DNA from: Blattamonas nauphoetae
Lineage: Eukaryota > Preaxostyla > Oxymonadida
Length of the DNA: 64,000 bases
Assembly: GCA_033064195.1 (NCBI GenBank)
Contig: JARBJD010000184.1
Location: 1 to 64,000 of the forward strand
Reading direction: 5' to 3'
Shown: piece by piece, positions 10,701-41,083 of the stretch
Numbering within the stretch: position 1 is the first letter of the stretch
How the letters are laid out: every line of letters begins with the position of its first letter
Made by a program: the position numbers and the translations under genes
The notes under the pieces: generated by a model
The model's input: only the letters and a program-made list of their open reading frames with translations
Told to the model about the DNA's origin: nothing
The model's database searches: none

Positions 10701-11782
10701 AGATATTTTCTTGCCTTGAACTTCAGGAAGTGTGAGGAATGATAGCGCTTGAAAGAAGCAGATATTGTACTCAGAATCGATGTATCGAACATTCCTCGTT
10801 TTGATGTGTTCAGTGAGAATTGCATTGGCTTTTCCTGCATCTGGAAATCGATAGACTCAACCAGAATGGAGTGGAATGTAATGTAAACGGTCTTCGTATC
10901 CATCAGTGTTCTCTCTTCTGATTCTTTTATCAGATTGATTGCATATTTTGAATACTCATTGATGTCGCCTGAACTTCTGATCACAGTTGGGAATCTCTTC
11001 GATGTATTCTCCAATTCTGGTCTGAAGTCATTGTAAGTTGTCTCATCTTTGTCTTTTCTCTCGATGATCTTTCCAAAGTCAATACTAATCTTGAATGGAT
11101 GATCTTTCTCCTTGTCGAACACTGCTTTAGTGAAGGTTGTGATTTCCTCGACATTCTTCAGATGATTGTGGAAGTACAACTGATATGGTTTTCCATTGTC
11201 TTCAACCTTCTCGACCTCATTCTTTTTGAACTTCCTTCGTGCATCCATGAGACAAGAATTGAATGCTGCTTTGTCTCGTGGTTCAGCAAGTAGAATGCAT
11301 TCTTCAAATCCCTCAAATGTCTGCACTTCTCTCTTTTCCATTTGTTCATTTTTCTTCTGAATGATTAACAGATTCTTCATCCAATGATCCATCAGCTTCT
11401 CTTCAATTGATTTCAGTTTCCACGTCATTTTGAACACTTGCTTTTTCAGTTCCTCTTTGTTCACTCTTGGATTTTCTTTCATGATTTGCATTCTTGCTTT
11501 GCTGTCTTCTTCATTCATCATTGCATTGTTGTTGTGCTCTTCCAGTTTGTGAATAAAATCATCAATCTGATAGTTGGTAATATTCCTTATCTCTCCTTCA
11601 AAATGGAGATCTGGATTCTTGAGCATTGACAGGAGATATGCACGATGATGTTGGTAGTTTCTAATGTTTGGATTATATGTTCGATCATAGCCATGTTCAT
11701 CCTTGAATTCAAAGGTGGTGTTTGGAAATAGTGCTCTTATTTTCGTGATGCTGTCTGTGACAAATTTCAGTGTCGCCGCCAT
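7711..11782 (-). pseudogene. Protein-primed family B DNA polymerase region of the Polinton-like element
   Basis: The largest gene region of the element. The well-preserved N-terminal third is a charged, helical domain. The middle shows exonuclease-type blocks (IGFNSSRFD near 9,860 and YNIRDVE near 9,445), and the distal part has palm-type blocks. A cysteine-rich HNH/treble-clef-like block (CYICKCHF, DRIDNSKGH, CCDYCN) sits within the polymerase near 9,000-9,130. This order fits pPolB of Polintons. The region is broken in several places and is treated as a fossil. Confidence 0.7.
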
Positions 11783-11825
11783 TTACTACAAATTAAAAAA
11801 TCCGAAAATAAAAAAAGTTGAGCGT

Positions 11826-12215
11826 TTATTTCTGTTTTCTCTGATGGGGCTTTATCGTTGCCTTTAGCCAGGAATCAAGTCTAATTCTGAACACTTCACT
11901 TCCGCCAATCTCTCGATATGTGAATGGAACCAGAACTTTGGTGTACTCACCGACGAGCTCACAATTATATTTCTTCAGTTCATTTTCGACGAATGATTGA
12001 GTGCAGTGCCGACGTTTTGCTATGTGTGGTCGGTTTCCTTGATTCCACAACTTTGGTTTTATTCTCCATTCAACTCCCTCATGAACATACGTCACCGGCA
12101 CATTATTTCTGACATACTCAGAGACTAGCGAACAGTTCTCTTCTTTCATTGATTCAATTAATGCTTGTTCTGAACATACTCGACGTCTTTCGTTGTACAT
12201 TTCAGTTGGATTCAT
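11826..12215 (-). CDS. Small repeat protein of the element, 129 aa
   Basis: Appears whole. It contains two units of the about 60-residue repeat shared with 15,064-15,666: a CSLVSEY/CELVGEY start, a PVTY or PFTY word, an EW or FRI strand, a tryptophan, and RPH or KPH before a basic tail. The layout recalls small viral and homing-endonuclease-associated repeats thought to bind nucleic acid, but the cysteine pairs of those families are missing, so the function is not known. It lies between the polymerase region and the palindromic satellite. Confidence 0.55.
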   Translation of the reverse strand: MNPTEMYNERRRVCSEQALIESMKEENCSLVSEYVRNNVPVTYVHEGVEWRIKPKLWNQGNRPHIAKRRHCTQSFVENELKKYNCELVGEYTKVLVPFTYREIGGSEVFRIRLDSWLKATIKPHQRKQK

Positions 12216-12479
12216 TTAATACAAATTAAAAAATTCAAAAATAAATTTACATTCGTGATTTTATCATTTGTGATCTTCCGAGACTTCGATTCTGTCATCG
12301 ATGGGTTCGATCAGTCTTGTTTGATCAGCGAAAGTACTTCAATGGGACACGATCATCCCTTCTCATTCCTGACGTCTCTTTACTGTTTCGTTTAGGTGTG
12401 TTATGCTTTCTACTTTCACATTTGTTCTCTCTTCTTTTTTGTCTCTTCATTCTTGTTCTCGATCCTTCACTTTTTTCTG

Positions 12480-13930
12480 TCTCTCTCGTTCAGGTACATC
12501 ACATTGTTTTATGAACGGTGGTTTCATTCCCGACTTGTTTTGAACAGGTTTGCTCCATTTTTGAATTCATTATTTCCTAAAACACATTTATGTACCAACG
12601 CCGATCAAACCGAAAGTGGACCTGAAGATCAGGTACACAGATGCGTTTTATCGCTTAAGAGTATGTCTCTCGTGATTTACCAAACAGGTATTCTCTTCTT
12701 TTTTATTCATCTTTTCATAAAACATCTTCATGTACTCGATCTGTGTGATCATCAAACTCAGGTACACTATTGCGTCTTATGACCAGAAAGTGCTGTTCAC
12801 TGAATATTTGAAACAGGTTTGCTCTCTTTTTTGTATTATCTCTTTATAAGACACAATGACGTACCAGAATTTTCACTTCACTTTTGACATTCTCTTTTCT
12901 GGTACAACACTTCACTTTATCCTCTCATTTTCACTTCATTGTCAATTTTTTCTCATTGTCTCTCACTTTTTTCAAAAATTAAAATTTAAAATGACGTGAA
13001 CAAAATTTTGATCCTCATCTTTCTTCGAGAAACTTCGTGATTCATCGATAAAATTGTATGCGTTGGTACACCACTTTGTTTTACTTTCATTCAACTTTCA
13101 TTTCACCTTTTACACTTCACTACTCTTCGGTTTGTGCTCTTCATTTTTTCTAAAACACAACGGTGTACCAACAAAACGCGATCTGAAGTGATCATCCAGA
13201 TCAGGTACACCACTTCACCTTATCGTTTCATTTCACAACTATTTGATTTCAATTCTCTTTTTTGATCAAAACAAAGTGGAACACAGAACTAAAAATGTTT
13301 GATCGTCAAGATAAAAACGAACTGTAAGATCTGGTACATGAATGTGTTTTATCACTTCAAACCTTGTTTCACTTCACAATTTTGATCTCTTTATTGACAT
13401 TTTTGCTCTAATCTTTCATAAAACAAAGTGGTGTACCAACGAGACTCAATCTGAAATGATCGGTGAGATCTGGTACATGAATGTGTTTTATCGTTTAGTT
13501 CTCACTTCAATCATTGTTTTTTACTCTTGTTTTCTGAAATTTTGATGAACACGTTCATAAGGTGAAGTGGTGTACCAACGAAGTGAGAAAAACAATGACT
13601 GGAGAGATCTGGTACGTCACTTCACCTTATCGTTGCTAACATTGTTTCACTTCACAATTTTACTCTAATTAGAAACATTTTGGTCAAACTCGTTCATAAA
13701 GTGAAGTGGTGTACCAATGAAACGCGAACAACAAAGATCGTTCAGATCTGGTACGAGATTTTGTTTTATCGTTTAGTTTTCACTTCACTCACTTGTTTTT
13801 TCTCTTTGTTTGTGAAATTTTGACGAACCCGTTCATAAGGTGAAGTGGTGTACCAACAAAACACAAAGAATCAAGATCGCTCCGATCTGGTACATGATTT
13901 TGTTTTATCGTCTCATTCTCACTTCATTTA
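12480..13930. repeat. Palindromic satellite array, about ten units
   Basis: Each unit has two arms facing each other around a 30-45 nt loop: a left arm ending GTGGTGTACC and a right arm starting GGTAC and ending TTTTAT or CCTTAT. The best unit, 13,557-13,630, pairs ATAAGGTGAAGTGGTGTACC with its partner at 18 of 20 positions. The last four left arms start at 13,418, 13,557, 13,696 and 13,835, a period of exactly 139 bp. Earlier units (from about 12,480) are looser in spacing and sequence. Arms mix two central versions (GTGAAGTGG and CAAAGTGG), as expected from conversion between arms. Confidence 0.8.
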
Positions 13931-13994
13931 CATTTTAGTACTCTAGTTTTGTGAAATTTAGATGAAGATGTTCATCAAACTCAATACTTTCCCA

Positions 13995-15915
13995 CCATTT
14001 TCACTATTTCCATTTCACCATTCACTATCATACTTGCCCACTTCATTTTAGCTTCATTCACCTTCATTTGGTCTAATTAAGAGAAAAAGTCGACGAAAAA
14101 TGAAGTATTGTGATGTGCTCGTGAAGTGTGAATGACTGAAAAATGGGTTGTAAAATGAGGGGAATGAAGAGGAGAGTTGAATACCTGAAATGTGAAACGT
14201 GGAAAGTGAAATGAGAGATGAAAGGTGTTGAAGTTGTTTAAGCTTAGACAAACGGTATGATGGAAAAACACATAAAACCAACATTATGAAAAACTAGTCG
14301 TCAAAAGTGTCGCGAAAATTCAGTACTCCCTCCTCGAAAGGTGAGAAAGAAGATGTGATGTGAGAAAATCGGGGCAAAAATCGATATGAGTGAAAAGTTG
14401 GTGAAAATGTGGTGCAAAAAGGTGCGTTCAAAAAAAGACGACTATGAAGGTGAGGTGATCGGGAACCTAGGAAAAGCGTCGGAAGGACGCAAATGTGAAG
14501 ATTTTGAAAAATCTAACGTAAAAAACGAAAACTGACGAAAAAGTGGTGAAAGATGACGTGAAAAGTGAGGGTTGAAAAGTGTCACCAAAAGGCGACTCCG
14601 AGCAAAATGAAGTGTAAAAACGCAAATAGGAGGCAAAAGTGATCCTAAAAGTGAAGTGCTGAAAGCGCATACATTTTTTAAAATTCGGAGAAACTCGAAA
14701 AATGGAATATGGGTTGATCTAGAAAAATCCCGATCCGGCCTTGATCTAACCAAAAATCCCAAAAGTGTTTTTTATCGCGAATTTCACCTTCTGAAATCGA
14801 TTTTGTAATTTTAGAAGGTGTTTGAGGTGTATTTGAGCCATATAGCAGCAGTTTTAAGCAAGTTCTGAAAATCGACTTTTTGGACACTTTTTTGACCACT
14901 GTTCGGTACGTAGCTCCACGAATTCTCAACCGATTTTCATCAGGATTGTTTTGATCGACGACTCACATCGTCCTCGACATTTTAGAATTTTTTTCGATTT
15001 TTTTCGAAGTGGTTCTCAAGTTGGATTCACTTTGTTGTGGTCAAAAATAGATTTTCAGTGTTTTCATGACCTCTCGTGGTACTTTCTCAAGTGAGGACGG
15101 TCTCCAAAATACAACCAATTGTCTAGTCGAACGTAATACTCATTCTTTGTTCGTAAATCGCGATATTTGAATGGCTCAAGTACCTTTGTGTATGTTCCAA
15201 TGAGTTCGCAATTCTCTTTTTTCAATACATTTTCAACAAATGATTGAGTGTAATGTTTTCGTTGACAATTATGAGCTCGATATCCTTTCATCCATTTCGA
15301 GGGAATCACTTTCCATTCGATTCCTTCGTACCGGTATGTGACAAGTGAATCAGCATACTTGTATTCAGAAATGAGTTCACAATTTTCATTTTTCAATGAT
15401 TCGAGAAACTTTTCTTTCGTGCAACAATTAGATGCTGAAAGATATCTCTGGCGATTCAGATGTGGTCTGTATCCTTTGACGAAATTATTGACATACGCTC
15501 GATAAATGTCATCTGGTTTATCTTCGTGCACGTATTCGAAAGTACTCGCCGTGAGATATGTTGTTCCTTGTCGATTGAGAGTTGGTGGTGATTTCAGAAT
15601 CAATTTTTCTTTCTCCAAAATTTCCTGTAGTTGAGTTGGTGTCAAGACAGAGCTCATTTTATCCAAATTAAAAAATTGAATAAAAAAAGAAATCGACTTT
15701 GTTTTCTGAAAGCACTCAAAATTTGCTTCAAAAAAGACGCTTCAAAAGAGGTCCAAATATTTGACATATTTTTGGAATTTAGGTCAAATATTGACATCGT
15801 CAAAATGCATAAAAGACTTTTAGTTCAAGATTCAAAAGTGGGTCAATCGGAATTGAGATTTGACTTCTATTTATCGATCGAGACCAACGTGGTTCTTAAT
15901 TCTTCTCTATAACTA
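13995..15915. repeat. Right direct repeat of the Polinton-like element
   Basis: Direct counterpart of 1,140-3,050. Similarity ends near 15,915, which is the best available estimate of the right edge of the element. It contains the whole 200-residue small repeat-protein gene and an A/G-rich stretch (14,090-14,760) with the same words as the left copy. Confidence 0.7.
15064..15666 (-). CDS. Small repeat protein of the element, 200 aa, whole copy
   Basis: Three tandem units of the family's about 60-residue repeat: first TYLTASTFEY...RPHLNRQRY, then CELISEYKYADS...RAHNCQRK, then CELIGTYTKVLEPF...RPHLRK. The last two units are joined by TQSFVENVLKK, the linker also present in the 129-aa relative. 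It opens with MDKMSSVLTPTQLQEILEKE after an AT-rich leader. There is no signal peptide or membrane segment. Conserved W, RPH and CEL positions suggest a small repeated fold. The function is unknown; DNA binding is only a guess from loose resemblance to endonuclease-associated repeats. Confidence 0.6.
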   Translation of the reverse strand: MDKMSSVLTPTQLQEILEKEKLILKSPPTLNRQGTTYLTASTFEYVHEDKPDDIYRAYVNNFVKGYRPHLNRQRYLSASNCCTKEKFLESLKNENCELISEYKYADSLVTYRYEGIEWKVIPSKWMKGYRAHNCQRKHYTQSFVENVLKKENCELIGTYTKVLEPFKYRDLRTKNEYYVRLDNWLYFGDRPHLRKYHERS

Positions 15916-16826
15916 CTACTCTCCACTCTGCTTGTGTTCCCAGACATTATACCAATTGCACCGACTCCTCTTCAAGATTGGTGTTGTGTCTTGCGGCAGT
16001 GGACCGTACGGTGTTGTTTTGCTCGGTTCGGCGAGAGGGATCGTTGGATGGAGGACTGAACATGACCGATCGTCGCCTCTTCTGTGCAGCCTTGCATCAT
16101 GACGAAATGGCTGTTTTACAGAGTTGGTGACTTGGATGAGAGTGTTGGTTTGTTGATCGAACCGCTGATTGTGAATGAACGATGGAGATGCTCAAAAATC
16201 TGATGTCGACAATTTCTCCGCCAACGATCGTTGCTCTTCTTTGTGACAGGCGATCTGGTGGCTGAAAAGATGATCGCTCCGAATGGACAGTTTATCTGTT
16301 TTACGACGCAGAAGACGTCGATGTCTGTGTGATTGACGTGAACACTTGTGTGGCGAATCTGACAACTCCAGATGGACATGAAAATGTCGAAAATGAACAC
16401 ACTGTTGAACGATAGACAATGCATGGATTCTTCTTGGAATAAATTCTCGTTCCATCAGAGTGCTTGTCTGCTACTGTCCGAACTCCGCTTTTCCATCGTC
16501 GAAAGCAGGAATCCTCTCAACCACGGAAATACCTACTCTGATCGTCGTTTTCTGCCGCTCTCATCAACCGACGATGGTGCCCGTTCACTCCCTGCTCGTC
16601 TTTCTCGTCTTCTTGCATTTCCTCACTTGTTGATTCGTTGTTCTTCATCGAGTTCGTTCCTTCTTTCTTTTTGTCTCGTTCACAAACTCCATAGCATTCA
16701 TCGATTATCTCACTCGTTATGATTTGATGTTTTTTTCTTCCTTCGGACATCTATTTCATCTCAATATGATTGTTTTCCATCTTTCTTTTGACCCATAATG
16801 AGAATTGTTTCATCGAATCCATCAGA
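15916..16826. other. Gap with decayed coding-like patches
   Basis: Between the element and the first ARM-like gene. Plus-strand patches around 16,080-16,460 read like protein in more than one frame with stops between them and may be a decayed gene, but I recognise no family. The last 100 bases before 16,827 are T-rich, as upstream of other genes here. Confidence 0.4.
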
Positions 16827-17971
16827 ATGACCGAGATTGCCATAAAACCAGCCACTTCATCAAATCCAACACGCTCTGACTTGACCTCCTCTCAGTTATT
16901 CTTTTCAATAGATTGCTCTCCTTTCCTGAATTGGAACAAAGAAGACCTAGAATCTCCCGAGGAATGGGCAATTGTTTTTCGATCTCTCGTTGCCACTGTG
17001 AAGTCTCAGCCTGCTCTTGATGTCTGTCTGGAAGCGAAAGCAGTTAAACTTCTAGTTTATATTTCTCCATGGAAAGAAGAATCAGCCGATGCTTTTCTCA
17101 ACAGCTTTGCATCGAACTCCGGTGATTCTACGACAGAATTCGTACAATACATTGTGGTTCTCCTTTCTTCAACCAGCCAAGTCATCACCACAGCAGCAAT
17201 GAAGCTCCTCGATTCTGTTGTCCAGAACAGTTCAGCTCAAGTCCGACTTACCCTTGTCAAAGCTGATCTGGTTCCTCAACTCATCAACACTCTCAATCCA
17301 CAGTCTTTTTCATTCGCGGAAGGAGTGGATATCCACATCAACCTCACGAACAGCGTATCTCGATCTCTCTGGCTCGCAACTCCGTATTGTCTCGAACAAC
17401 ACGGAATTGAAGATTGGAATGAACAACAAGCTGTTCACGAGACGGTTTTGAAGCATGTTGTGGCACCCTCGGAGAAGTATATTCGACATTTATGCGTCAA
17501 CCGATATTCGATCATCGGCAACAGCCGGGATGTTGGGAACCAACAAGACTGACATGACTTGTCTTCCTTGTCCGTCCACACATCATCACCATTTCATTCC
17601 TCCATTTTTAAGGAAAATCTCCACTCAACTCATGAAGAAGGAAGGAAATACAAGAATGAGCATTTCTGGAATTATGAAGAATAAAAATGTAAAGAAAAAA
17701 GAGATTCTCCAGCAAGACACTCTAATATTATGATGAGTAGTTGTCCTGTCCTCCTCGCTTTCTGTCCGTCCTCCACTTTGTCTTGTCCGATTCTGAAAAT
17801 GAAAGAAAACAGCGATTTTTTGATGTTTACGGTGAAAATATTGCATTTTAGGACTGATTTTGGCGTTTTTTGCACAAAAAACATGAAAATCAACAAAATC
17901 GATCCAACAAATCACATTAAGGGTTGATCACGAACTTAACCATCTCGAGTAGTTTTGTTTCCGATGAATTA

Positions 17972-20900
17972 TTACGAAAGACAGAAAACGAAAGAAGGGC
18001 CGGAACAAATGGAAGAAAAACGAGTGAATATACTGTGGATTTCATCCGGTGAACGTAGAAAAGCCGGAGGAACGGCTTGAGGTTCGCCAAATTTGTGCCG
18101 TATTGAAGTGAGAGATGGAGCAATCGAACGTTTGAGAGGAGAGGGAGGAAGCAGTGTGGGGGCAAGACCCTTTCCAGTGACATTCCACTTCCACTCGCCT
18201 CCATCGCGGGAGGTGATCTTGATCATTGTAGCTTCCTCAACATCGATTTGCGACGGAGATAACTTGCAGATGAAGTTGACTGTCTGGGACGGCTGAACGA
18301 CGATCTTATTTTGGAGGCCGAGAATGTTGAGGGCGTCGACTCGGGCGATGGTCATGTGTGAGTCGACTGTCTGATGGACAGACTCGATTTCCTGTCTGTC
18401 AAAGTTGATGGGTGTTCGTTGGTGTTGGGCGGAAAGAGGTGTGATCGAGAAGACAAGCGGATTGGAACTCGCCAGCAATGTCATTCGAGAAGGCGATGAA
18501 GCTCAACTCTTCAAACTTGTCTTCTTCGTTCTCCACTCCTTCCAGGATGAGTGTCGGGAAGACAGGGGTGTAGATGAGTGTGTACACATCCTCGACCAGC
18601 GAATCCAGATGGAACGACGGTGGGTCCGTGAGTCCCATTCCTCGCATCTTCACAGCGAACGCAATGCTTTCTGTCTCGCTTGGGTTGAAGAGGCGGAGAT
18701 CGAGAGTAATTGGCTTCCGAACTTGAGTGCTGAGATTCACCTCCTCCTCGTTCGTAATGGACATCAGAGTGCCCTCCTCTACACCCGCGTGTGTACTGGG
18801 GATGGTCAGCTCGTACTCGTTCGAATGTGCTTGTGCGGATGGATACGAGCTGAGTGCAGGTGTGGGTTGCTGATTTGAAATCTTTGAGTCGGACTTCAAT
18901 TTCGTCGGAGAGACACTATTGAAAGCAGCGACAGGATTCTTGGATGGTGTTGATGGAAGTGATGGATTGCTTGTTTCGGTTGGAGGACACACACGTTATG
19001 TTCCTTCTCCACTGCAGGGCGGGACATCGCAGACAACACGATACTTGATATGCCCTGGATTTGCCATCGGGACAACAGTTTTGCGTTTCTGTTCAACTCT
19101 GGCAACTGTGTCGACTTCGATGCGGAACGAGAACTTGTCTGCTGACGTCGATGGTGTAGAGGACGATGATTGAACAGTGTTCACAAGCTTGTACATCGCA
19201 GTCGAGTGTGGATTGATGTTCAACTCACTTGGTCCCGTGAAGACAGCTTGATTGCCAGCTCCTGTTGACCCTGATGTTGGAGTGAGAGTGCATTTCATGA
19301 CCCATTCTGTCAGCGTTGGGTTTGCAATCGGGATCTCCTGTGAGACAGGCTTTCAAGCGATGGTCTGCAAATCAATCGTTGCTTCCATTCCGGGTGACTG
19401 GGCAATGTCTTTGATGTCGAAGATTCGGAGATCGAGAGTGGACTTGAGGACAACACGGCACATGTACTCGCCGGCCTGCTTCGGATGGAAGGAGAAGGAC
19501 AGCCGCACACGACCGCCTGAAGTGTCGGTCTTTTGGCCGTCGGCTGTGGAAAACACCTTCTTCAATCCTTGCGGCTGTTCGAGGACAATCTGGAGTTCTT
19601 TCGGGACCGAGAAGAACGGCGAGGTTGATTCGACTTGCTAAGTGAGCGAGTTCAATCGGTGATTCTTTGTGGGGAAGATGATTTCCTGTTGAGAAGCTGT
19701 GTCTGCCTGTCCGATAATGATGAAGGACTCCGACGGTGCGGGGATGGTTGAGATACCTTCGATCTCCACTGTGAACTCGCCCTGGTCTTCGTCGCGGAAC
19801 ATCACACGGCATCTGTGCACGCCCACAGAGATTGGTTGGAATTGGACCTGGATGGTGCCTGTTGCTCCACTGGTGAGCATCAGCTGCTGTGTGTTTAGTC
19901 GGGACTGTACGGGACCGCTTTGTGTTTTGGGTGTTCCGAGAGACTTGGGGGAGCCTCCAGGCGTCGATGTCTTCGCAACTGCTGTTGGCGCGGGAGGGGG
20001 TTGGGTTTAGCACTTTCGTCACCAGCTTCATCGCAATCTGGTGGACTTGACCGCCTCCCTCGTTATTCGTGATGAACAACAGAGTCGCCTTGATTGGGTT
20101 GGAGAAGCGAGGGCTGACTGTAACTGTGACAGAGCCAGGGTTTAGAGATTCGAGAGTGACGTGCGGCGTGTGAAGAACAAATGCCGCCGAATCTTCCAGT
20201 TTGACAGTGTGTTGGAGAGTGCGTTGTGATGGATTCTGAAGTTTGATGACTTTGGTTGGAGCTTCCTTCTGTTTCTCCTCTTTGAAGATGCCCGGAAGAG
20301 CTTTGAATCGTTTGAGAGTCACTTTGCTCAGAACGAAGAGCTTGATTATCTGAAGAAGAAGCGTCGTCCACGCGATGTTGGACACAACAGCAAACGTCTC
20401 CTTCGTCTCCTGACTCTTCTGCACAGCGAAGAGAATCTCGTTCACGCCGGGGACGGGATAGTGGAAGCGGCTCGAGACACTCATCCGCCACAAATCGAGC
20501 GTATTCGGCCCATTTCAGGAAATACTCCGGCCGCAGCTCCGACACACCGCCTCCGTAACTCCGAATGAAGGCGAGGATGGCGGTGTAGTGCGAGAGGATC
20601 GCCTGCAGGCGTTCGGTGTGGACGACATGGTCTGAGGAAGGGAGTGGCGTTGGAGGTCTCTGTTTCGTGCTGTTGGTGTGACTAGCTGTTTTGAGGGCGA
20701 CATCGGAGTTCTGATCACTGACGAAACTGGCGGGGCTGCGTGGGTTGTGTTTCCAGTCATCATCATCGTCTGCATGATTTCTGCGAGAAGTCTGCTCGGG
20801 ATCTTCTCGCCGAGGATGTCCTCGAGCACTTCCCACAGTGGCTGCCCGAACTGCTCGATCATCGACTCTGGCCAAGCAGAAATGCGAGCGGCAAGGAAAG

Positions 20901-21109
20901 ACGTGTTCAGGAAGTGGAGGAGGACCTTGTTGAGCGAGGACGGGTAATACGGCAGAGAGAACGAGCCCTCGTAGGCAGGTGCGAGGAGTGGTGGCCGCGA
21001 AGATCCCTCCATATTTCTCTACGGCTCGGGTGCCACCATTCGCTGTGATCTGGCGAGAGAGGGCGTGCGTGTTGGATGCAGATTGTGTCACTGAGAGGAA
21101 CAGACGCAT
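17972..21109 (-). pseudogene. CFAP47: CFAP47-like ciliary gene fragment, decayed
   Basis: Minus-strand protein-like sequence in several frames that reads in the order of CFAP47. A CH-like block comes first (FLNTSFLAARISAWPESM, FGQPLWEVLEDILGEKIP, about 20,770-20,940), then LSHYTAILAFIRSYGGGVSELRPEYFL (about 20,530-20,610), then repeated ASH/MSP-type beta domains (KVIKLQNPSQRTLQHTV; QVQFQPISVG; QEIPIANPTLTEW; IKITSRDGGEWKWNV near the end). CFAP47 is a cilium-associated protein built from such domains. There are at least three in-frame stops (near 19,640, 19,355 and 18,998) and at least four frame changes, so this is a pseudogene. It lies wholly inside the inner transposon, which suggests capture. 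The family call rests on domain order recalled from memory. Confidence 0.6.
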
Positions 21110-21695
21110 CCATACCTTCGAAGGACTTGTGTATTATGGAACTTTCCTTGAGGGATGTTCGCTCAACAGCTTCGACTGGAGATAGTGGCCGGAAGTTGGG
21201 TGTCTCGACGCATTTTGGTTGATTGGCTGAGTTAAAACACCGATCGGATCACAAAAAGATACGAGTGGACTGGCTGTGCGGGAGTTTGCGGGTGATTTTT
21301 GGTTGTTGACGGAGAGAATGACAGGAGTGGGGGAAGATGCTGGGTGGACCGTTGGTGGCTTCGTTTGGATTTGTGAAGGCCCAACTATTGAAGGATTTGG
21401 AACATGATGGAGAGAATTGGACATCGCATGTGTGAATGAGTCTTTGGAGAGGATTGTGTGGGGATGACAAGTGACACCGATGTCTTGGTTGGATCATCCA
21501 CTTTATGAGTCAGTATTTGCTATTGTGCATTTCCCATTACATCCATATACACTTTGCTGCGTAGTTCGAATACAGTTGAGCTGAGTATCATCATCAAAAG
21601 AGAGTTGTGAAGGTGTTGTGGGCGATCGATGTTTAATCCGTTTGACTGAGGTATCGAGATCATTGCTTGCTCTACCGCTCATTTTGCTGTGGTTT

Positions 21696-22483
21696 TCATA
21701 GCTGGGGCTTGGGAAATAGGGTATTTTCCACTTTCGGGGAGATCAGTGGGGTGTTGGACAGGATCGCTGGAGTCTCATCAGGAACCGTGTTGTAGAGGAC
21801 AGGAATTAGTTCATTCGGTCTAACAGCCCATTTTGAGCGGGAAAACGTGCGAGAGAGGAAGAACACTCCCACGGAAACGCCGAGAATGGCGACGCTCAAA
21901 CGATCCACATAATGGTATTCAGCCACGTCTTGTCATTGCCAACGAATGAACAGATCATTCCAGTGAGATGGAAGACAGCGATATCAGCAAACTTTGCGGA
22001 ATATTATGCGTTGGCTGTGTCAGTGAAGATCGGGAGCACGAAGAAGGAGGACAGGAAGAGAAGGAGAGATAGTGCGAGGCAAGCGAGGGTTAGATATTGG
22101 GGGAATCGTCTGAGGAACATAGTGAAGATGTGAAGGGCCACGTTGGTCAACAAGACAAGTGAATTGAAGATGACTGTTTGGCATGTGAAGTGTGATCAAG
22201 ACATCTATTCCAAATTAAGAGAGACAAACAGAAAAATACGAAGGTAAAAACAAAGGAGAGGCATACTGACATCGTGAATCTTCCATATCTCTCTTCTTTC
22301 GGTCCACATCAGATCTGCATTTGAACCATACACCAATTCCAGACTAATGAAGAGTAAAACACGGATAAGATGGCAAAAACAATGGAAATTCACACTGATA
22401 TTGTGATATTGGCATTTATCAAAGGAGGTTGTAGTCATGGACAGAGAAGAGGAGAGTGTATGAATAGTCGAGCAGATCTCCAC
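21696..22483 (-). pseudogene. Fragment of an unidentified membrane protein
   Basis: Minus-strand sequence with three hydrophobic segments in different frames: one near 22,050-22,100 (LTLACLALSLLLFLSSFFVL), one near 21,870-21,900 (VAILGVSVGVFFLS) and one near 22,340-22,380. Stops and a frame change separate them. A possible intron lies near 22,210-22,270. It is inside the inner transposon, upstream in transcription terms of the CFAP47-like fragment. No family recognised. Confidence 0.3.
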
Positions 22484-22791
22484 AAATTTTACTTCAACGG
22501 AGATAAAAATGAGGTATCACGGGACAAAAGAAGTGTTGAATGGAGGACGAACTTCAAATCGCGGGATGAGATGGCCTGAAAGATAAGTGATGACAAAGAC
22601 AACTTGACATGGGGAAGAGGATCAGATCATAGGACAGGACAGGACAGGACATGTCCGATTTGTCCTGTTTTGAGATAAGTATAGAAGTTGGATGAACTAA
22701 TTGAGAGAAAGTTACAGTGAAAATATTAGGTGCTTGTCCGATTTGTTCTCCTCTCTGTCCTCTCTTGGGCCGATCGTCCTGTAAACTCCTA

Positions 22792-23844
22792 CAGGGTGTC
22801 CCAGACTGAACCCCTTTGTTTTTCTTTTGACGTTCATCACTCTACAGATAACCTTCACTTCTCGTATTACATTATATCACTCCATAGTTGCCGCATTTAA
22901 TCGAAGAGTGAGGAAAAAAGGAAATATGTCTTGATAGGGACGGAACAAATGCATGCCAAACATCTGAAGTGGAACGACGGACGTTGAATCAAGAATCGGA
23001 GGTGAAGAACTGGAGAGTGAGAAAATTGATGGAGTTTGAATGGATGTCAGAGAATTCTGATAGAAAAGAACTGAATGTAGATGGAATTTCGACGGTGATT
23101 TTGCGATGCCTGGATTCCAAAGAGCACTCAGATTGTGATCATTCCTAGGAAAGATACTTCAAGAAAAGATAGCGAACAAACACATTCGAGATGGAAAAGG
23201 GTCATTCTCGATCTGTTAAGTCTTTCAGCGGAGATGGTTATCGCGTCCGCTGTGGTACTTATGATTGCGATCAATTCAACGATATCAAATATCTTTCATG
23301 GTCATTTCCTTGTGGTTGGAGCATGGACGAAGAATCTCTAAAGTACTATGCCTACAATATACGAAAAATGAGTGATCGCAAACTTTGGCTCAAATTATCT
23401 GAACACACGTCCAGGGGGAGAGAAGTGTTGACTGTTAGAAACAAAATGATGAACGATGGAGATAGGGTCAAGATATTCGGACAATCCCATGTTTTTGCGA
23501 AGGATAGGATCTGATCTCCCCCATTGAATGGGAAAACGCTCCTTCAGACAATCGCTGTTCTCTGATTGTTTTCCAATTATATTTCACGTCCTTTGAAGAT
23601 TTCAAAATCCAACTTGATATAATGAATGAATCACAGATCATAATTCCGAATGAAGTGAAAATACTTATTTCTTTCTGAAAGAGGTCTGAAACAGTTCCCT
23701 ATCAAGACATATTTCCTTTTTTCCTCACTCTTCGATTAAATGCGGCAACTATGGAGTGATATAATGTAATACGAGAAGTGAAGGTTATCTGTAGAGTGAT
23801 GAACGTCAAAAGAAAAACAAAGGGGTTCAGTCTGGGACACCCTG
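22792..23844. mobile_element. Mariner-like element, 1,053 bp, with identical 149-bp inverted repeats
   Basis: It begins CAGGGTGTCCCAGACTGAAC and ends with the exact reverse complement. The repeats 22,792-22,940 and 23,696-23,844 appear identical over 149 bp. It is flanked by TA on both sides (22,790-22,791 and 23,845-23,846). The CAGGGTGTCCCA start and TA duplication are hallmarks of Tc1/mariner. The about 755-bp interior has no recognisable transposase, so it is probably non-autonomous. The empty site would read AACTCCTAATTAGGAGTT, a perfect 18-bp palindrome around the TA. Confidence 0.88.
23191..23514 (+). CDS. Unidentified 107-aa frame inside the mariner-like element
   Basis: Opens MEKGHSRSVKSFSGDG and reads as a mixed, mostly polar protein with several aromatics (YLSWSFPCGW, DRKLWLKL). 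No mariner D,D(34)D pattern is visible. It may be cargo or a chance frame; its coding status is uncertain. Confidence 0.22.
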   Translation: MEKGHSRSVKSFSGDGYRVRCGTYDCDQFNDIKYLSWSFPCGWSMDEESLKYYAYNIRKMSDRKLWLKLSEHTSRGREVLTVRNKMMNDGDRVKIFGQSHVFAKDRI

Positions 23845-24308
23845 TAATTAGGAGTTCATCGGACAGAGACCCGACAGCTCGTGATTCGTCACCAAAACGA
23901 TTTTTATGCACTTTTCCGCCATTTTTAACATCACATGACAGATACAATCGAATATTGAAAGATAAATTCACCCCATATACTCTGAAAATGACAAAACACA
24001 ATCGGGGGTTTTGAAATCGTCTTTTCAGGTCTTCTCATGAATTCTCTGGTACTGTACAGGTCAGAATGGAGACAAGGAGTGGCTAACGAGGAGAGAGAAT
24101 GTGAACTCAGATGAAATAAACACGAGAAAAGCTGAATTTCTGAATCGGACAAGACCTCTGTCCTCTGTCCTCAAGATCTGGTGCTCTGTCCGTCCGCTAC
24201 TCATCATAACTCTAATACGTTAACTCTTTTGATTTTGTGGTAAATCGTGTGGTAGATCTGCTGAAAAATGGCTCCTGCTGGTCCGATCGAGGCCACATTT
24301 TGTTTTGT

Positions 24309-24447
24309 CACTTCACAAAGATCCTTTTTTCTATGTTTCTTTTGATAATTCTCTTCTAGTCTTCACAGCCCCCCTGCTCTTGAGCGGGGGCTGTGAAGAC
24401 GACCAGACATTGTGAAAAAGCGACAGAAAAAAGGATCGGGTGAAGTG
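24309..24447. repeat. Foldback hairpin, copy 1
   Basis: Outer arms CACTTCAC...GATCCTTTTTTC and GAAAAAAGGATC...GTGAAGTG. An inner, near-perfect stem of GTCTTCACAGCCCCC pairs with GGGGGCTGTGAAGAC, closed by GCTC-TT-GAGC. The whole stretch can fold into a two-tier hairpin. It lies inside the outer miniature element. A close second copy is at 26,995-27,135. Confidence 0.8.
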
Positions 24448-25012
24448 AGAATCAACTCGAAAAGCACGATCACAATTTTTTCGACGAAATTTTTTTCAAA
24501 CATATCGATTTTCGTTGACCATATGTGGCTCTTGTGAAAGTGTTGAGTCTGGGAGATGAGTTCCCATCTGCCCGGCTGTTGCCCGATCATCGATCGCGAG
24601 TTATCCTGGGTTTTTCTGACTCTCCTTGGCCGACTCCTCCGAATATCTCCTTCTTATCAACCCACATTGGAAATCGTTCTTCGTATGCCTGTCATTCTCA
24701 CGATCCCAAGTTGTCTCACATTCTTCGACAAAGAGAGCTCATTCAGGTTTTCTCTGCATATAATGAACAATATTCAACGTGAATTGAACGATTCAAAGGG
24801 AGAATTGCGACAGATGGGGAAGAAAATGCATCGAATGTTGAGAATGGAGGGCGTCGAAGATGTGACTGAAGAAACGCTGAGAAACGACAAAAATGAAGAC
24901 ATCGGAAGATATATTGTTGCTGACTCGATCGAACTGAACAACCTTCAGGGACTAAACCTTCCAGAACATGAATAGAGACAGACCATTCACAGCACAGAAT
25001 CGGGCCGCACTT

Positions 25013-25540
25013 CAAATGGTTTTGCCTCTCTCAAATTTGAAGATGATGATGAACAACAAGCTGTTCATGAGACCGTTTTTCCGCAAGTTTTGGTCCCTTC
25101 GGAGAAGGATATTTGGCATTTGGGCGTGAATTACTTTTCGATCGTCGATGGAGACCAATCAATACAATTCTTGCTCCTTCTTGGCCGACTTCTCCACATA
25201 TCTCCTTATTACCAACCGACACTGGATTTCATTCTGAATCTGCCAGTTGTTCTCACAATCCCAAGTTGTCTGACATTCTTCGAGACAGATGCCGCTATTA
25301 GGTATTTCTTTCTGAATATGCTCGATCGCTGTGAAAACTGGAAGAATCAAGCCAAAATACGGGAGAACTCTGACAGACATGGAAGACAGTGAATCGGCAG
25401 TTGAGAATGGAGGGCATCGAAGATGTATTTGAACAAAGGCTCCGAAACAACAAAGCTAAATCAAGGGGTGGATGGATTGTTGCCAAATCAATCAGATGGA
25501 ACAACCTACTGGGCATGATATTCCCGAAACAGGAATAGAG
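25013..25540 (+). pseudogene. ARM-like family gene, copy 2, 5'-truncated
   Basis: Matches only the C-terminal part of the family, starting at the EQQAVHETVF word (about 25,045) and running through PSEKDIWHLGVNYFSIVDGDQ, LLGRLLHISPYYQPTLDF and FFETDAAIRYFFLNML, with a frame change near 25,365-25,400 before the last MEGIEDV motif and a TAG near 25,537. It lacks the first about 230 residues. It sits head-to-tail between copy 1 and copy 3, consistent with tandem duplication followed by decay. Confidence 0.75.
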
Positions 25541-25691
25541 ACAGATACGACCCAGCTCATCTTCTGCCAGTTATTGTGTGACTTTCTCTCAGCTATGGCA
25601 TTTCACAATATAGTCATGAAAACATGGATCTCCATTTCTAAAGATTCATAAGTGAACCCATATTCTTTAACTCTTTAATTAAATCCACTTA

Positions 25692-26768
25692 ATGAGTGAT
25701 TCTGTATCTCCAAAAAGCGTCTTAAATGAGCATTACAATGATGGTTTGTTATATTTTCGTCTTTCATTGTCGGTCGACCGTTCAGCATTCATGAATTGGG
25801 ATGGCAAACCAAGCGAGACATCTTTGGATACATTAGCAATCTTTCGATCATTGGTGGCTCGGTCGAAGAACAACCATCATTTCGATGATGCTTTGGAGAA
25901 GAAAGCCGTCTTATTTTTTGATCAGATCAAGTTGCACAGTTCCTTCAATTTAGAAGACTTAATTTATGACCTAAAGCAGTCGATCTCAAGTGAATCTTTG
26001 ACAAACTTCGTAACTTCGATCAATGTGCTCATTTCTTCCTCCAGTCAGGCTATCAATATCGCATCGATGAAGGTGCTTGACAGTCTGATCCAAGATATTA
26101 CTCCACACATCCTTCTTGGTCTCGTCAAAGCTAATCTAATCCCTCAGCTCATCATCACTCTCAATCCACAGTCGCTCTCTTTTGCAGAAGCTGAAGATAT
26201 CCACGCTTGTTTCATTTCGATCATCACTTCATCGACGTGGCTCGCAACTCAGATGGGACTGGACGAACTTGAAAAAAAACATCCTCTTGAAAGACACACA
26301 ATGCATCAAACTGTTTTGGATCAAGTTCTCGTACCATCAGAAGACTATCTTCTCCACCTGTGTGTGAACCGCTTTTCGATCATCGATGGGGACCAATCTT
26401 CAGAATTCATGCTCCTTCTTGGCCGACTCCTCCACATATCTCCGTATTACCAACCCACGCTGGATTTTGTTCTTGATCTGCCAATCGTTCTCACGATCCC
26501 AAGTTGTCTGACATTCGTCGAGACAGATTCCGCTATTAGGTATTTCTTTTTGAATATGCTCAATCGCTCTGAAAACTGGAAGAATCAAGCCAAAAATATT
26601 CGACTGCCAAGGATGACACTTCTTCGCTCGTTGAGGATGGAAGGACTGGCTGACGTGTCAGAACAAAAACTCCAAAACTGCAAATGGGGGTCCTACGGAA
26701 GGGAAATTGTTAGGTCTGCAATCAGATTGAACATTACCCAGGGAATGAACCTTGAACGACTTGAATAG
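25692..26768 (+). CDS. ARM-like family protein, copy 3, 358 aa, whole
   Basis: Single exon from ATG at 25,692 (after an AT-rich leader) to TAG. Family landmarks in order: AFMNWDGKPSET, LAIFRSLVAR (about residue 55), INVLISSSSQAINIASMKVLDSL, LVKANLIPQLIITLNPQSLSF, PSEDYLLHLCVNRFSIIDGDQ, LLGRLLHISPYYQPTLDFVL, ETDSAIRYFFLNML and a C-terminal RMEGLADVSEQKLQN motif. All-helical, with no signal peptide or membrane segment. I recognise it as an expanded family of this lineage, probably ARM/HEAT-type, but know no function. It is the reference that shows copies 1 and 2 to be broken. Confidence 0.85.
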   Translation: MSDSVSPKSVLNEHYNDGLLYFRLSLSVDRSAFMNWDGKPSETSLDTLAIFRSLVARSKNNHHFDDALEKKAVLFFDQIKLHSSFNLEDLIYDLKQSISSESLTNFVTSINVLISSSSQAINIASMKVLDSLIQDITPHILLGLVKANLIPQLIITLNPQSLSFAEAEDIHACFISIITSSTWLATQMGLDELEKKHPLERHTMHQTVLDQVLVPSEDYLLHLCVNRFSIIDGDQSSEFMLLLGRLLHISPYYQPTLDFVLDLPIVLTIPSCLTFVETDSAIRYFFLNMLNRSENWKNQAKNIRLPRMTLLRSLRMEGLADVSEQKLQNCKWGSYGREIVRSAIRLNITQGMNLERLE

Positions 26769-27611: not shown

Positions 27612-30600
27612 TATTTTCAAAGTACTCCATATTTACCTACAGGTAGGACATTTTTTATTCGTACATTTTCTTTTTTTCCGTGTTAGCACCAATTGAATCC
27701 CCCTGCTTGGGTCGTAGTCTTCCAATGGATCATCAGTTCGTTCTATCTTCTCACACTTCCACTCAAACGCATGTACACCTCTGGATCATATTTTGAAGTT
27801 CTTGTGAGATTTCTTGGGTTTGCTCTTTCTGTCCTGAAACTCCACCAGAAACTATATCGACCCACAGTTCTTCCTCAGCTCATTCTCTCGACTCATCATC
27901 TTCTTTGTGGTTGTTGTCCTCCTCGTATTTCTCCCATATATCTTTCTTATCGTGACAACTATATTCTCTGGAACCGACAAGCAACTTCATCGATACATCG
28001 GAAAAGCCACCAGAGTCTTTGGATATCTCATCGTCTCACCTGTATCCTTTTTGATCACTGGCATCCTCGCGAAACCATTATCGTGTTATCTAAAGCCACC
28101 ATATATCAACTTGGCGTACTGCACGGAGACAACTCAGCTTCCGATGGTCATCATTGGATGTATTGCTTTTGCAGTTCATGTCGTGTTTATCTCCGTCTAC
28201 CACTTCTTTGTGTTCGAATCAAACCTTTCAAAGCCGTCACTGCTTCGGGCTCGATCTGGAAGGACGATGGCCATCATGATGAGTATCATCACGATCTGGT
28301 TCTTTTTCTCGGGGACTGTCATCATATTCACGTGGAAAACCAACGGATTCGTTCACATTGCAATATCGTCGGTTATTTCTGTTCTTATACTCCTGTTCCC
28401 ACCGTTCTACACACCAAGAATGAATTGTATCGTATTGGCCACTTTTCTGTGTTCTGCGTGGGGTGGAATCAGTACTTTCATGATTAACGTGACAATGACC
28501 TTCTCAGCCTCACTTGGGTCACCAATTTTGCCCAATATCTTGCTTTACCTGTTTGTATTCGGTGGCTCAATCGCCATCTGGATTTGCGTTCATACATTTC
28601 TTCCTCGCTTTTTCAGACGCAATTGGCTCGTTGAAATCGATAGACAACCTTCCAAAATATCACCAAAAACGCCGCAAATGCTCCAAACACTATCGACTCA
28701 TCAAGAGGTCGTCGGATTCACACTCCGACTTGGCAACGACACCTACATCTACAGAAAGGCTGGATTTCCCATGCCAAGCATTACACGCCTTCCTTCGATT
28801 GCTCCCCTGAGTATGCCATCTGTCAAACAGTTCTCGTCGACAGGCTCCCTTCTCGGCAGCCCTAACCCCATAACCCCTGTCTCTCCATCAGTTGCGTCGA
28901 TAAATCCTTCCATTCTCACCCAAGCAGCTCCTATTTCTGTTCTCTCGTCTATCAACCCATCTCCAGCATCGGAGACTCCTCGGACACCAACTGTCATTCA
29001 AGCCCCGACGATCATACTGCAGCCGTCGGTGGCTATCCTCCCAAAACTGGCCACAACACCTGCTCCAACCTCATCTCGTGATGCCGATTCTCTCCTTCAG
29101 AAAATGCGGGATAGTCGGGCGGAAGCTGCCAGAAAGAAACAGCCGCAAACGATCGTCCTTGACGAGAACAATTTGAGGGATATTGTTCCCCTAATCGCCA
29201 AAAATTACAAAGATACACGCAAATTTCGTGAAGCTCTTCAATTTTTGCAGACTCCGGAGCTTTCCAACGACGCCTTCACAGTTCGGATGGTTGATCAAAC
29301 ATTCCGGCGTTTGGTGGCGAAAGATTGGTTCGGATTGAAAGCCTCCGTTCGAATAGACTATGGAATCTTCCTTATGCAGAATATGGGTGCACAATACCGG
29401 ATGGGTCTTCAGATCCAGAAGGCTGTTGAATTGTTCCCAGATTGGACTGATCGATGGCTCAGTTTTGTTCTGACGAAAGAGATGGAGAAGAAACAATCTC
29501 CACAAGGAAAGAAAACCACTGGAAATAATCTTGAGAAGCTTAGAATTGCTAAAATCAACAAGCCACTTCCGCCAGGGAAAAAGCTCACCTTCGCTGTGAA
29601 TGACGAAGACGCAGTGAATGCATTCGCTCGCCCATCCGATTCTGGCGACGACAACTCTGCTTCCTCCAAAATGTACAACTTACAAGCCCAGCTCTCGCAG
29701 GCCCACAAACATTACATTTCAGCGATGCACAATCTCCAAATCATGTGGATGTATCTGGGAAGAAGAAATGTGGATTGTGCAAAAGTGCAGACACATGCAC
29801 TGAGAGCAATGCACGCAGAGAAAGAAGCCACTCATCTGTACATCAGTTTGTTGACAGAGAACCCAGACAACCCAAATGTAATGCGGCCGTTCGCGAGACT
29901 GCTCCGAGACGTGACTTTTGATGACGAAGCATCAAACATGCTGATTCAGGAGTCGGACAGGGTGGAGGACATGAACGAGAGCTTCATTCCAATTGAGTGG
30001 GGGAACGATGAACAGGGGGAGAGTGACGATGGGGGGATGAGTGAGTCTTCGGTCAAAAGAGAGAACACCGTTGTTGCTCCAACCCACACCGAGAACAGCC
30101 CGCAATCAGCACCGAAGACGACGTCAGCCAGTCTGTCGCTGTTCCTCAATCAACTGAAAGCAAACGAACCAAAGAAATCTAAATTGGACAACTTGATCCT
30201 TCCTCTGAACATCTTCTCTCTCGTCGGTGTCCTCGTCATCACAATCGCAGCATATGTCATCGCCAACACATCCTTCGTTCGATTTGTCGTTCAATCAGGA
30301 AACCTACGAGCAACACTGTTCACAGCGATGTCGGCAGAAGAGATCGCTTATCTCCTCGCAACAATGGCCCATCTTTCACAGAAGATCCCTGACCACACCA
30401 ACCTCGTCACAGATCAAGACATCTTGTACTACAATTATTTATCAGATTTGATCGATGAACTGCGGCCAGCCTTTGATACATTCAATAATTATGTGCAAGC
30501 GTTTTACAAGGCTTGTGACAAAGAGTGGTTTTCTGGACATAACATACCTTATTCTGTTCCGAAGAATCTTGTGGGCGGGAAGATTGGGACGAGATTTGAC

Positions 30601-39754: not shown

Positions 39755-41083
39755 TCACGTCATTTGGCGGACGAAGTGAGCTTGACGTTGCTGACATGGG
39801 AATTTCGGGCTGAATGATCATCTCCAACAGTCTCAATCGCGAAGAATCGCAGTATTGAAGACCGACACGTCGAAAACTGAAGATGTGGGTCGATCAATTT
39901 ACATGAGTTTTTCTGTTTCAATCTGTCATTTCAGGAGCCCCATCTGTATCTTTGTCATTGTTTTCTGTGTGTCCGGTAAGCGTTCGAGAAAATTCGTGTT
40001 TAATGGATCTTATTGCCACTAGAAAAGCATTTCCACATGTATTCGGGCAAGTTTCTGCTCGTTTCTACTAATTAGACAGAGGAGTGTTAAGGAGAGAGAA
40101 TTCTATGAGGTGAAGTAAAATAAAGGCAAAAAAGTATTGTGCTTCCAAGGAAATCAACAACTCAAAATGAGAATGTAAATCCACAATTCCGAGAGAAGAG
40201 TTCGTGACAATTCAAAATAACTGAGAATTCCCAAGTTGTACCCGCATATGCACAAGAAAAGCTCGTTCCATCATCCCCCAAAAATCACTGTCGAGTGGAC
40301 GGCATGTTCGATTCCTGAGTTTGGCCAAAGCCACAAGAAATGCTGGTCTGACGGTCTCTTTGCGCAAACTGGTCGAAATCGCCAAAATATGAACATAATA
40401 AGCAGTTATCTCGGATCGGACCGGAATCATGACGAAAGTCGAAGGCGACGGTTGATGTGTCAAATGAGGGATTTATCCGAGATCCCACAATATGTCGGCA
40501 ATTTCAGTTCAGGAGAGAAATGTACAACACGAATTGGATCGGTTGTGTCCAAAATATGACATCATTCAAGGATTGTGCAAATCCAGTTGTATTGCGACTG
40601 GTTTCTGGTTTCATTGATGAAGAGGTTGACCCCTAGAATCGCAACGAGAAACAAAAATCAAGGGGAAAATACTTCCATACATCACATCCATCTCGTTTTC
40701 AGCGAGGATCTCCAGAGTGTCGGGAGGGACGGAAGAGTCAAAACTGTTCGTTCATAAGATGAGATACAGATTTTTGTGACAACTTTTCGACTGTCAACAG
40801 ACGATGAAATCCACAGCAAATATTTGAGACATAATGTCGTATCTAATGTAATCAGACTTTGAGAGATGTCGTTGCTGTCTTTTGAGCTTCGTGTGATCTG
40901 ATGTAGGATGGAAGTAGAGTTAACATGGAGGCAAAGAAATATCAGACAGATGTCTACGCGGTAAGCGGAGTTCATTCAAAGCTCGGTTCATGGATGATTT
41001 GTACTTGGAGTGGAAATGTGGAGAGAATGAACAATGGTTTGATCATCGAATTATTCTCCTTCAACCAAACATACGAACGACCT
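39755..41083. other. Intergenic region between divergent genes
   Basis: 1.3 kb between the start of the helical-repeat gene (minus) and the surface-protein gene (plus). Short frames only. The frame of the surface protein is open upstream to 40,925, but the start at 41,084 is preferred because it creates a signal peptide. Promoters of both genes must lie here; no motif is clear. Confidence 0.55.

What the first reader, a model, noticed from the sequence alone, without database searches (positions are those of the whole stretch)
17509..24591. Three-level nest of DNA transposons inside one coding exon
The ARM-like gene is cut at CGATCATC by a 577-bp miniature element. That element is cut at CTCTAATA by a 6.48 kb element, which is cut at TA by a mariner-like element. 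Each level has its own inverted repeats and exact target duplication. Counting one duplication, the gene has 357 intact codons against 358 in its neighbour. The order of arrival can be read directly.
Basis: seen in the sequence. Interest (0 to 1): 0.88.

Follow-up and report, generated by a model that had tools for sequence, protein, structure and literature searches.

The report
Nested jumping genes, one gene-carrying
One gene of a single-celled gut flagellate is split by a jumping gene that holds a second, which holds a third; this is ordinary genome clutter except that the middle one also carries a copied piece of a flagellum gene.

Summary
The nest is real. An open 357-codon ORF (ARM-like, weakly supported) is cut by a 577-bp Merlin-like miniature element (L1). 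L1 is cut by a 6,482-bp element (L2), and L2 by a 1,053-bp Tc1/mariner-like miniature element (L3). Target duplications are 8, 8 and 2 bp. Related sites without the insert exist at each level: 6 of 6 gene paralogues read, 3 of 7 L1 relatives (2 distinct insertions) and 14 of 17 L2 relatives, 11 of these with the single TA. Which element lies in which is certain. Whether each jump happened at this gene, or an element arrived already loaded, is not.

The more interesting part was not in the finding. L2's family has 93 exact left ends in this 88.3-Mb genome. L2 carries a decayed copy of 4.2 kb of the host's own CFAP47/FAP47 flagellar gene, whose donor stands elsewhere as an open frame. Six elements share one deletion breakpoint in that cargo, so capture probably happened once, then copies spread. 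L2 resembles plant Pack-TYPE elements; its transposase was not found. By assembly statistics the genome is Blattamonas nauphoetae, an oxymonad. Other nested insertions were found, so the nest itself is ordinary.

The parts
16827..17516 (+). 5' part of the split ARM-like ORF, 230 open codons from ATG (ends with the left copy of the L1 target duplication)
   Evidence: paralogues align across the junction without a gap there
24592..24975 (+). 3' part of the split ORF, 127 codons plus TAG
17509..17516 (+). L1 target duplication, left copy CGATCATC
24584..24591 (+). L1 target duplication, right copy CGATCATC
17517..24583 (+). L1: Merlin-like miniature element, 577 bp without its insert; TIRs 17517-17529 and 24571-24583
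   Evidence: weak Merlin-type transposase remnant beside a matching left end on contig C98
17720..17727 (+). L2 target duplication, left copy CTCTAATA
   Evidence: single copy in L002, L003, L005
24210..24217 (+). L2 target duplication, right copy CTCTAATA
17728..24209 (+). L2: 6,482-bp element, TIR TTATGATGAGTAG, family with 8-bp target duplications; no transposase recognised in the five frames scanned
18143..21030 (-). captured, decayed copy of part of the host CFAP47/FAP47 gene (donor C62:95055-99239)
21034..22791 (+). right-hand backbone of L2, shared in large part with L047, which lacks the CFAP47 cargo; continues at 23845-24209
22790..22791 (+). TA target of L3, left copy (right copy 23845-23846)
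22792..23844 (+). L3: 1,053-bp Tc1/mariner-like miniature element, TIRs 22792-22940 and 23696-23844 identical over 149 bp; no transposase frame seen
25692..26768 (+). intact in-window paralogue of the split gene, 358 aa, one CGATCATC at the corresponding site

Best explanation
A multicopy single-exon ARM-like gene was split by a non-autonomous Merlin-type element (L1). L1 was entered by a non-autonomous, gene-carrying element (L2). L2 was entered by a non-autonomous Tc1/mariner-type element (L3). Each was presumably moved in trans by a transposase coded elsewhere, duplicating 8, 8 and 2 bp of target (duplications shown; trans-mobilisation inferred). L2's cargo is a copy of 4.2 kb of the host CFAP47 gene. 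It was taken up once by an L2 ancestor (supported by a shared breakpoint), most likely by copying during gap repair after excision (inferred). It was then multiplied with the element (shown) and shortened by deletions, the six measured in the window copy lying at short direct repeats (shown). The split gene is probably a null allele of one member of a large gene family (inferred).
For: TIRs and exact TSDs at three levels. Level 1: five genomic paralogues and the neighbour align across the junction without a gap there and with one target copy. Level 2: L002, L003 and L005 carry L1 uninterrupted with a single CTCTAATA. Level 3: 14 of 17 L2 relatives read across the site without L3, 11 of the 14 with the single TA. 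Families: L1 8 places including this one; L2 93 exact left ends; full-length L3 copies on C712 and C23 are 99.7-99.8% identical and 1,052-1,053 bp long. Cargo: six of seven aligned pieces are 92.8-96.5% identical to the C62 gene and one, which contains gaps, 83.4%; the second host gene C180 is 78%. C62 has a 3,834-aa open frame and its stretch matches solved FAP47 at 3.3e-84. Six elements align across one breakpoint at which C62 has 79 more bp. Six cargo losses lie at overlaps of 3, 1, 4, 9, 3 and 6 bp, against a mean of 0.7 for random deletions.
Against: No transposase was identified for L2. Hits of hAT (61), MULE (100) and IS1595/Merlin (94) domains were compared by eye with the 93 exact L2 left ends and none lies inside an element that starts at one of them. 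One IS1595-OTU frame (L042) lies about 2.8 kb inward of a truncated L2 left end that lacks its first 56 bp; no right end or own ends were found, so it is neither linked nor excluded. The Merlin link of L1 rests on one decayed relative without a right end and a sub-cut-off domain match. L3 has no transposase of its own. No allele of this very locus without the insertions was found. Three of 14 L2 copies lack an exact TSD, and 3 of the 14 L3-free sites lack the TA. Loss of function of the split gene is not shown.
Confidence: 0.93

Rival explanations
1. Assembly artefact: repeats from elsewhere were stitched into the gene by the assembler.
For: Nanopore-based assembly if it is the published one (PMC10703272, passages); all three elements are repeats; no second contig was found for the right-hand side.
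Against: A second contig, C426, has the same left L1 and L2 junctions, 894/904 identical with 9 gaps and 1 mismatch. The other junctions are exact TSDs with ends that match relatives' ends. An assembler would not create 8-bp duplications absent from paralogues.
Confidence: 0.03
2. Loaded arrival: L1 already carrying L2 (or L2 already carrying L3) jumped as one unit, so the order of arrival at the gene is not the nesting order.
For: TSDs fix only which element entered which. A unit with outer TIRs intact could in principle move.
Against: No other L1 place found is joined to L2 except the same-locus contig C426; three L1 relatives (L006-L008) are uninformative at the site. None of the 14 L2 relatives read across the site holds L3. 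The closest full-length L3 copies are 99.7-99.8% identical, as expected for a late arrival.
Confidence: 0.12
3. The 7-kb insert is removed as an intron and the gene still works.
For: All 357 flanking codons are still open, although no selection test was done.
Against: The insert is far longer than expected for an intron here (recalled); splice signals were not tested. The five genomic paralogues and the neighbour are single open frames. Recent insertion explains the open frame equally well.
Confidence: 0.03
4. The CFAP47 stretch in L2 is an old element gene that the host took over, not a host gene that the element captured.
For: Several elements carry it.
Against: CFAP47/FAP47 has solved homologues in the PDB named as flagellar proteins. 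The host copy is an open 3.8-kilocodon frame, while the five element copies read are broken and shortened. No exact L2 left end lies on contig C62.
Confidence: 0.01

Closest known systems
Merlin / IS1016 DNA transposons and their miniature derivatives (PMC8101967, passages read)
   Same: L1 has ends starting GG, 8-bp TSDs and a relative with a weak DDE_Tnp_IS1595 match next to the left terminus. Merlin is reported there with over 100 copies and 8-bp TSDs in Monocercomonoides, another oxymonad.
   Different: L1 has no transposase. Its TIR is exact for only 13 bp and imperfect to about 24. The transposase-bearing relative lacks a recognisable right end in the stretch read.
Pack-TYPE transposons of plants (Pack-MULE, Pack-CACTA, Pack-hAT; PMC8903248, passages read)
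   Same: L2 has TIRs and TSDs and no recognised transposase, carries a host gene fragment whose donor stands elsewhere, and multiplied with it.
   Different: The host is an oxymonad flagellate, not a plant. L2's superfamily is unknown. One captured gene stretch was shown here, not exons from several genes.
Tc1/mariner miniature elements
   Same: L3 has TA duplications, and its terminus CAGGGTGTCCC is mariner-like (recalled).
   Different: It is 1,053 bp with 149-bp perfect TIRs and no transposase frame; the autonomous partner was not found.
Nested transposons, including nested TvMULE1 in Trichomonas vaginalis (PMC2725143, passages read)
   Same: Element within element, with TSDs around the units.
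   Different: Three different element families stacked in one exon; otherwise the same phenomenon.

Membership tests
Merlin superfamily (L1) | termini start with GG | tested here: met
   GGCAACAG at both ends
Merlin superfamily (L1) | 8- or 9-bp target duplications | tested here: met
   8 bp here, in L002/L003 and L005, and 7 of 8 in L007, by reading the flanks printed
Merlin superfamily (L1) | TIRs of 24 bp or more | tested here: inconclusive
   13/13 then imperfect, 21 of 24 by reading
Merlin superfamily (L1) | DDE_Tnp_IS1595 transposase in an element with the same ends | tested here: inconclusive
   L008 has the left end and a 357-aa frame matching PF12762 at 2.3e-5, 24.9 bits, below the cut-off of 27; no right end within the stretch read
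hAT (L2) | hAT transposase in elements with these ends | tested here: inconclusive
   61 PF05699 hits in the genome; those near an exact L2 left end (C255, C398) lie outside the element (compared by eye)
hAT (L2) | TSD consensus nTnnnnAn (recalled) | tested here: not met
   CTCTAATA and the 11 exact TSDs show no such consensus by reading; one of the twelve (GTGCACAT) fits
Mutator/MULE (L2) | MULE transposase (PF10551) in elements with these ends | tested here: inconclusive
   100 hits in the genome; the one nearest to an exact L2 left end (C734) lies outside the element (compared by eye)
P superfamily (L2) | P-type transposase (PF21787) | tested here: inconclusive
   0 hits in the genome, but no control genome rang either
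KDZ superfamily (L2) | KDZ transposase (PF18758) | tested here: inconclusive
   0 hits, no control rang
Merlin superfamily (L2) | termini start with GG | tested here: not met
   ends start TTATGATG
Pack-TYPE-like gene-capturing element (L2) | TIRs and TSD without its own transposase | tested here: met
   no transposase by Pfam in the frames scanned
Pack-TYPE-like gene-capturing element (L2) | internal copy of a host gene whose donor is found elsewhere | tested here: met
   CFAP47, donor C62
Pack-TYPE-like gene-capturing element (L2) | superfamily of the mobilising transposase known | tested here: inconclusive
   not found
Tc1/mariner (L3) | TA target duplication | tested here: met
   here, C23, C257 and C490; on C712 only one side reads TA
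Tc1/mariner (L3) | DDE transposase in an element with the same ends | tested here: inconclusive
   no transposase frame seen in L3; of the longer copies only C490 was read in full, and it has no frame of 180 codons or more

The most novel reading that the evidence does not exclude
L2 is a gene-capturing DNA transposon family of an undescribed superfamily (TIR TTATGATGNNNAG, 8-bp TSDs, unknown transposase) that shuffles host gene pieces in oxymonads the way Pack-TYPE elements do in plants.
Probability: 0.2. Interest if true: 0.6.

Novelty: new member of a known kind. Interest (0 to 1): 0.36.

Why it matters
The nest is a clean, checkable record of three insertions, but other nested insertions turned up in the element copies read here. 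What would matter more is the middle element: a transposon family that picked up part of a host flagellar gene and spread it, in a lineage (oxymonads) for which the searches made here (top rows only where many papers matched) listed no report of gene capture by transposons. It offers a place to test how gene capture works outside plants and which transposase does it.

Tried and rejected
Looked for L2's transposase among hAT, P, MULE, IS1595/Merlin and KDZ domains in the whole genome and by Pfam scans of chosen open frames in L2 relatives. Nothing was assigned. A DDE_1 transposase in L037 belongs to a separate insert. An IS1595-OTU frame in L042 was tested for L2 or own ends around it; none was found. 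An apparent allele (C426) was dropped as independent evidence because around the gene it differs from the window almost only by short gaps. Gaps of the window's CFAP47 cargo relative to its relatives looked at first like missing introns; this was rejected because the donor gene is one open frame across them, so they are deletions. The ARM label was tested: profile matches are below cut-off; a low-confidence model of the neighbour (mean pLDDT 60, three-row alignment) is all-helical and its best matches are armadillo proteins at E 0.02, none below 0.001, so 'ARM-like' is plausible but weak. A PDB sequence search with the neighbour gave only an unrelated weak match (AsnC, E 0.005). The RNA-family scan of the window was empty.
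Full report
What was checked. The window lies on contig C95 of an 88,311,006-base, 837-contig assembly. The published Blattamonas nauphoetae assembly has 879 contigs and 88,537,989 bp (PMC10703272, passages). I take it to be this oxymonad; that is an inference from assembly statistics, not a sequence match. That it lives in cockroach gut is recalled.

The nest. L1 runs 17517-24583 between two CGATCATC copies, L2 runs 17728-24209 between two CTCTAATA copies, and L3 runs 22792-23844 between two TA. The terminal repeats are 13/13 bp for L1 and L2, and 149 bp without a mismatch for L3. Net L1 length is 577 bp. The gene flanks hold 230 and 127 open codons. Read on from the left, the frame stops at 17550 inside L1.

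Empty sites. Level 1: five genomic paralogues, chosen from the 40 scored candidates and fetched, and the in-window neighbour align across the junction without a gap there and with one target copy. It reads exactly CGATCATC in three of the six and a variant in the other three; the alignments have gaps elsewhere. Level 2: of seven L1 relatives, three (L002, L003, L005) read across with a single CTCTAATA. L002 and L003 share their flanks and are one insertion event duplicated on C57. L004 is the window's own locus on C426. L006, L007 and L008 do not cross the site. Level 3: of 17 L2 relatives, 14 read across without L3, 11 of them with the single TA (L034, L039 and L044 read otherwise there); L040, L042 and L049 were not informative.

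How firm is the order. Which element lies in which is certain. Whether each jump happened at this gene is not, because a loaded element could move as a unit. I saw no loaded relative, and the near identity of L3 copies (99.7-99.8% for the closest full-length ones) fits a late arrival.

Second contig. C426 is collinear with window 8561-18126 at 98.6% and has the same L1 and L2 left junctions before it ends inside L2. Around the gene it differs by 9 gap positions and 1 mismatch in 904. It is best read as the same locus assembled twice, or a haplotig with sequencing indels. It supports the junctions but is not an independent allele.

What L1 is. It starts with GG and makes 8-bp duplications, here and in L002/L003 and L005 (7 of 8 in L007; flanks printed). 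A relative on C98 (L008) has the first 93 bp of L1 at 94.6% identity and then, after a weaker stretch, a 357-aa frame matching the Merlin/IS1595 transposase domain at 2.3e-5, below the curated cut-off. Merlin elements are described with terminal GG and 8-9-bp duplications and are reported in over 100 copies in Monocercomonoides (PMC8101967, passages). I file L1 as a probable Merlin miniature element.

What L2 is. The left-end pattern occurs 93 times exactly, with 0 for the reversed control. Fourteen copies were tabulated of 17 relatives fetched around a left end; three without a right end in the stretch held were left out. They span 3.6-8.0 kb, and 11 have exact 8-bp duplications without a consensus seen by eye. 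The ends are conserved while the interiors differ. Pfam scans of five open frames of the window copy gave CFAP47 in three, the best at 7.4e-6, none above the curated cut-off of 27 bits. In the whole-genome search with the same profile the window piece reached 27.2 bits, and the same search found two host genes with open frames of 3,816 aa (C180) and 3,834 aa (C62) at 3.5e-23 and 4.7e-22, plus pieces in elements. The C62 stretch matches solved FAP47 at 3.3e-84 and a chain named cilia and flagella-associated protein 47 at 8.1e-41. Window 18143-21030 corresponds to C62:95055-99239: six of seven blocks are 92.8-96.5% identical and one is 83.4% including its gaps, with about 1.3 kb missing. C180 is only 78% identical, so C62 is the donor or closest to it.

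One capture. A query spanning one breakpoint aligns continuously in six elements (C95, C9, C832, C376, C272, C468), some with other gaps, whereas C62 has 79 more bp there. The breakpoint is the same in the five copies read. C211 and C159 hold further fragments not classified here. This supports one capture followed by copying. The six losses tabulated in the window copy sit at overlaps of 3, 1, 4, 9, 3 and 6 bp, taken from BLAST block ends. Random deletions of like size in the donor average 0.7 bp, and 3 bp or more occurs in 5.7%. Further gaps of 54, 48, 39 and 3 bp inside the 83.4% block were not tested for repeats. Short repeats at deletions are what gap repair with template slippage leaves behind (recalled).

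L2's transposase. None was found. Domain hits of hAT (61), MULE (100) and IS1595 (94) were compared by eye with the 93 left ends; none lies inside an element that starts at one of them. The nearest case is L042: an open frame with IS1595 and OTU domains about 2.8 kb inward of a truncated L2 left end, with no right end or own ends found.

What L3 is. It is a 1,053-bp element with TA duplication, mariner-like termini (recalled) and no transposase frame seen. Near-identical full-length copies lie on C712 and C23.

Is it unusual. Other nested insertions turned up among the copies read. The L2 copy L034 holds a 2,608-bp insert with 8-bp duplication ACGTTGAC. L041 holds a 3,369-bp insert with a 9-bp duplication. 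L037 holds a 1.6-kb insert, with a DDE_1 domain in an open 564-codon frame that begins just outside it; its target duplication was not settled. The C490 copy of L3 is itself split, with 11 bp repeated. For three other extra stretches (L038, L044, L047) the same test gave no convincing ends. The three-level stack is therefore a well-preserved example of a recurring event. The split gene belongs to a large family (1,037 first-look candidates, 40 scored, all 40 with matches), so loss of one member is unlikely to be dramatic.

Literature. The searches listed no report of gene capture by DNA transposons in oxymonads; only the top rows were seen where many papers matched. Pack-TYPE elements are described as plant elements (PMC8903248, passages). 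For PMC2725143, PMC8767320 and PMC13317346 passages or word searches were read; other papers were seen only as search listings. Absence from this library does not prove absence from print.

Verdict. The added value is the gene-carrying middle element, whose transposase remains unknown.

Noticed in passing
L042:3805-5676 (contig C35): 624-aa open frame joining a Merlin/IS1595 transposase domain (2.7e-9) to an OTU cysteine-protease domain (1.1e-5); it lies inward of a truncated L2 left end, with no element ends found.
   Followed up: partly
17725-17727, compared with L006 and L008: Two L1 relatives depart from L1 within 2 bp of the point where L2 sits. It may be the joint between L1's two halves, or a preferred target; unexplained.
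   Followed up: partly
24305-24451: The right half of L1 holds an imperfect palindrome of about 147 bp; a related piece lies in L041:5803-5973. Possibly an older miniature element inside the L1 family.
   Followed up: no
L034, L037, L041, L051: Further nested insertions in L2 and L3 copies: 2,608 bp with 8-bp duplication, 1.6 kb with a DDE_1 transposase domain in an open frame, 3,369 bp with 9-bp duplication, and an L3 copy split by about 3.5 kb.
   Followed up: partly
25177-25545: A fragment of another member of the same gene family (70% identical DNA) lies between the split gene and the intact neighbour.
   Followed up: no
13327-13975: Diverged tandem repeat with periods of 139 and 278 bp.
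   Followed up: no
27907-32604 and 40925-49054: Very long single frames: 1,565 aa with TmcB-like TPR repeats, and 2,709 aa with a C-terminal kinase-like domain.
   Followed up: no
L002 and L003 (contig C57): Two L1 copies about 24 kb apart in inverted orientation with the same printed flanks: an inverted duplication or an assembly fold.
   Followed up: no
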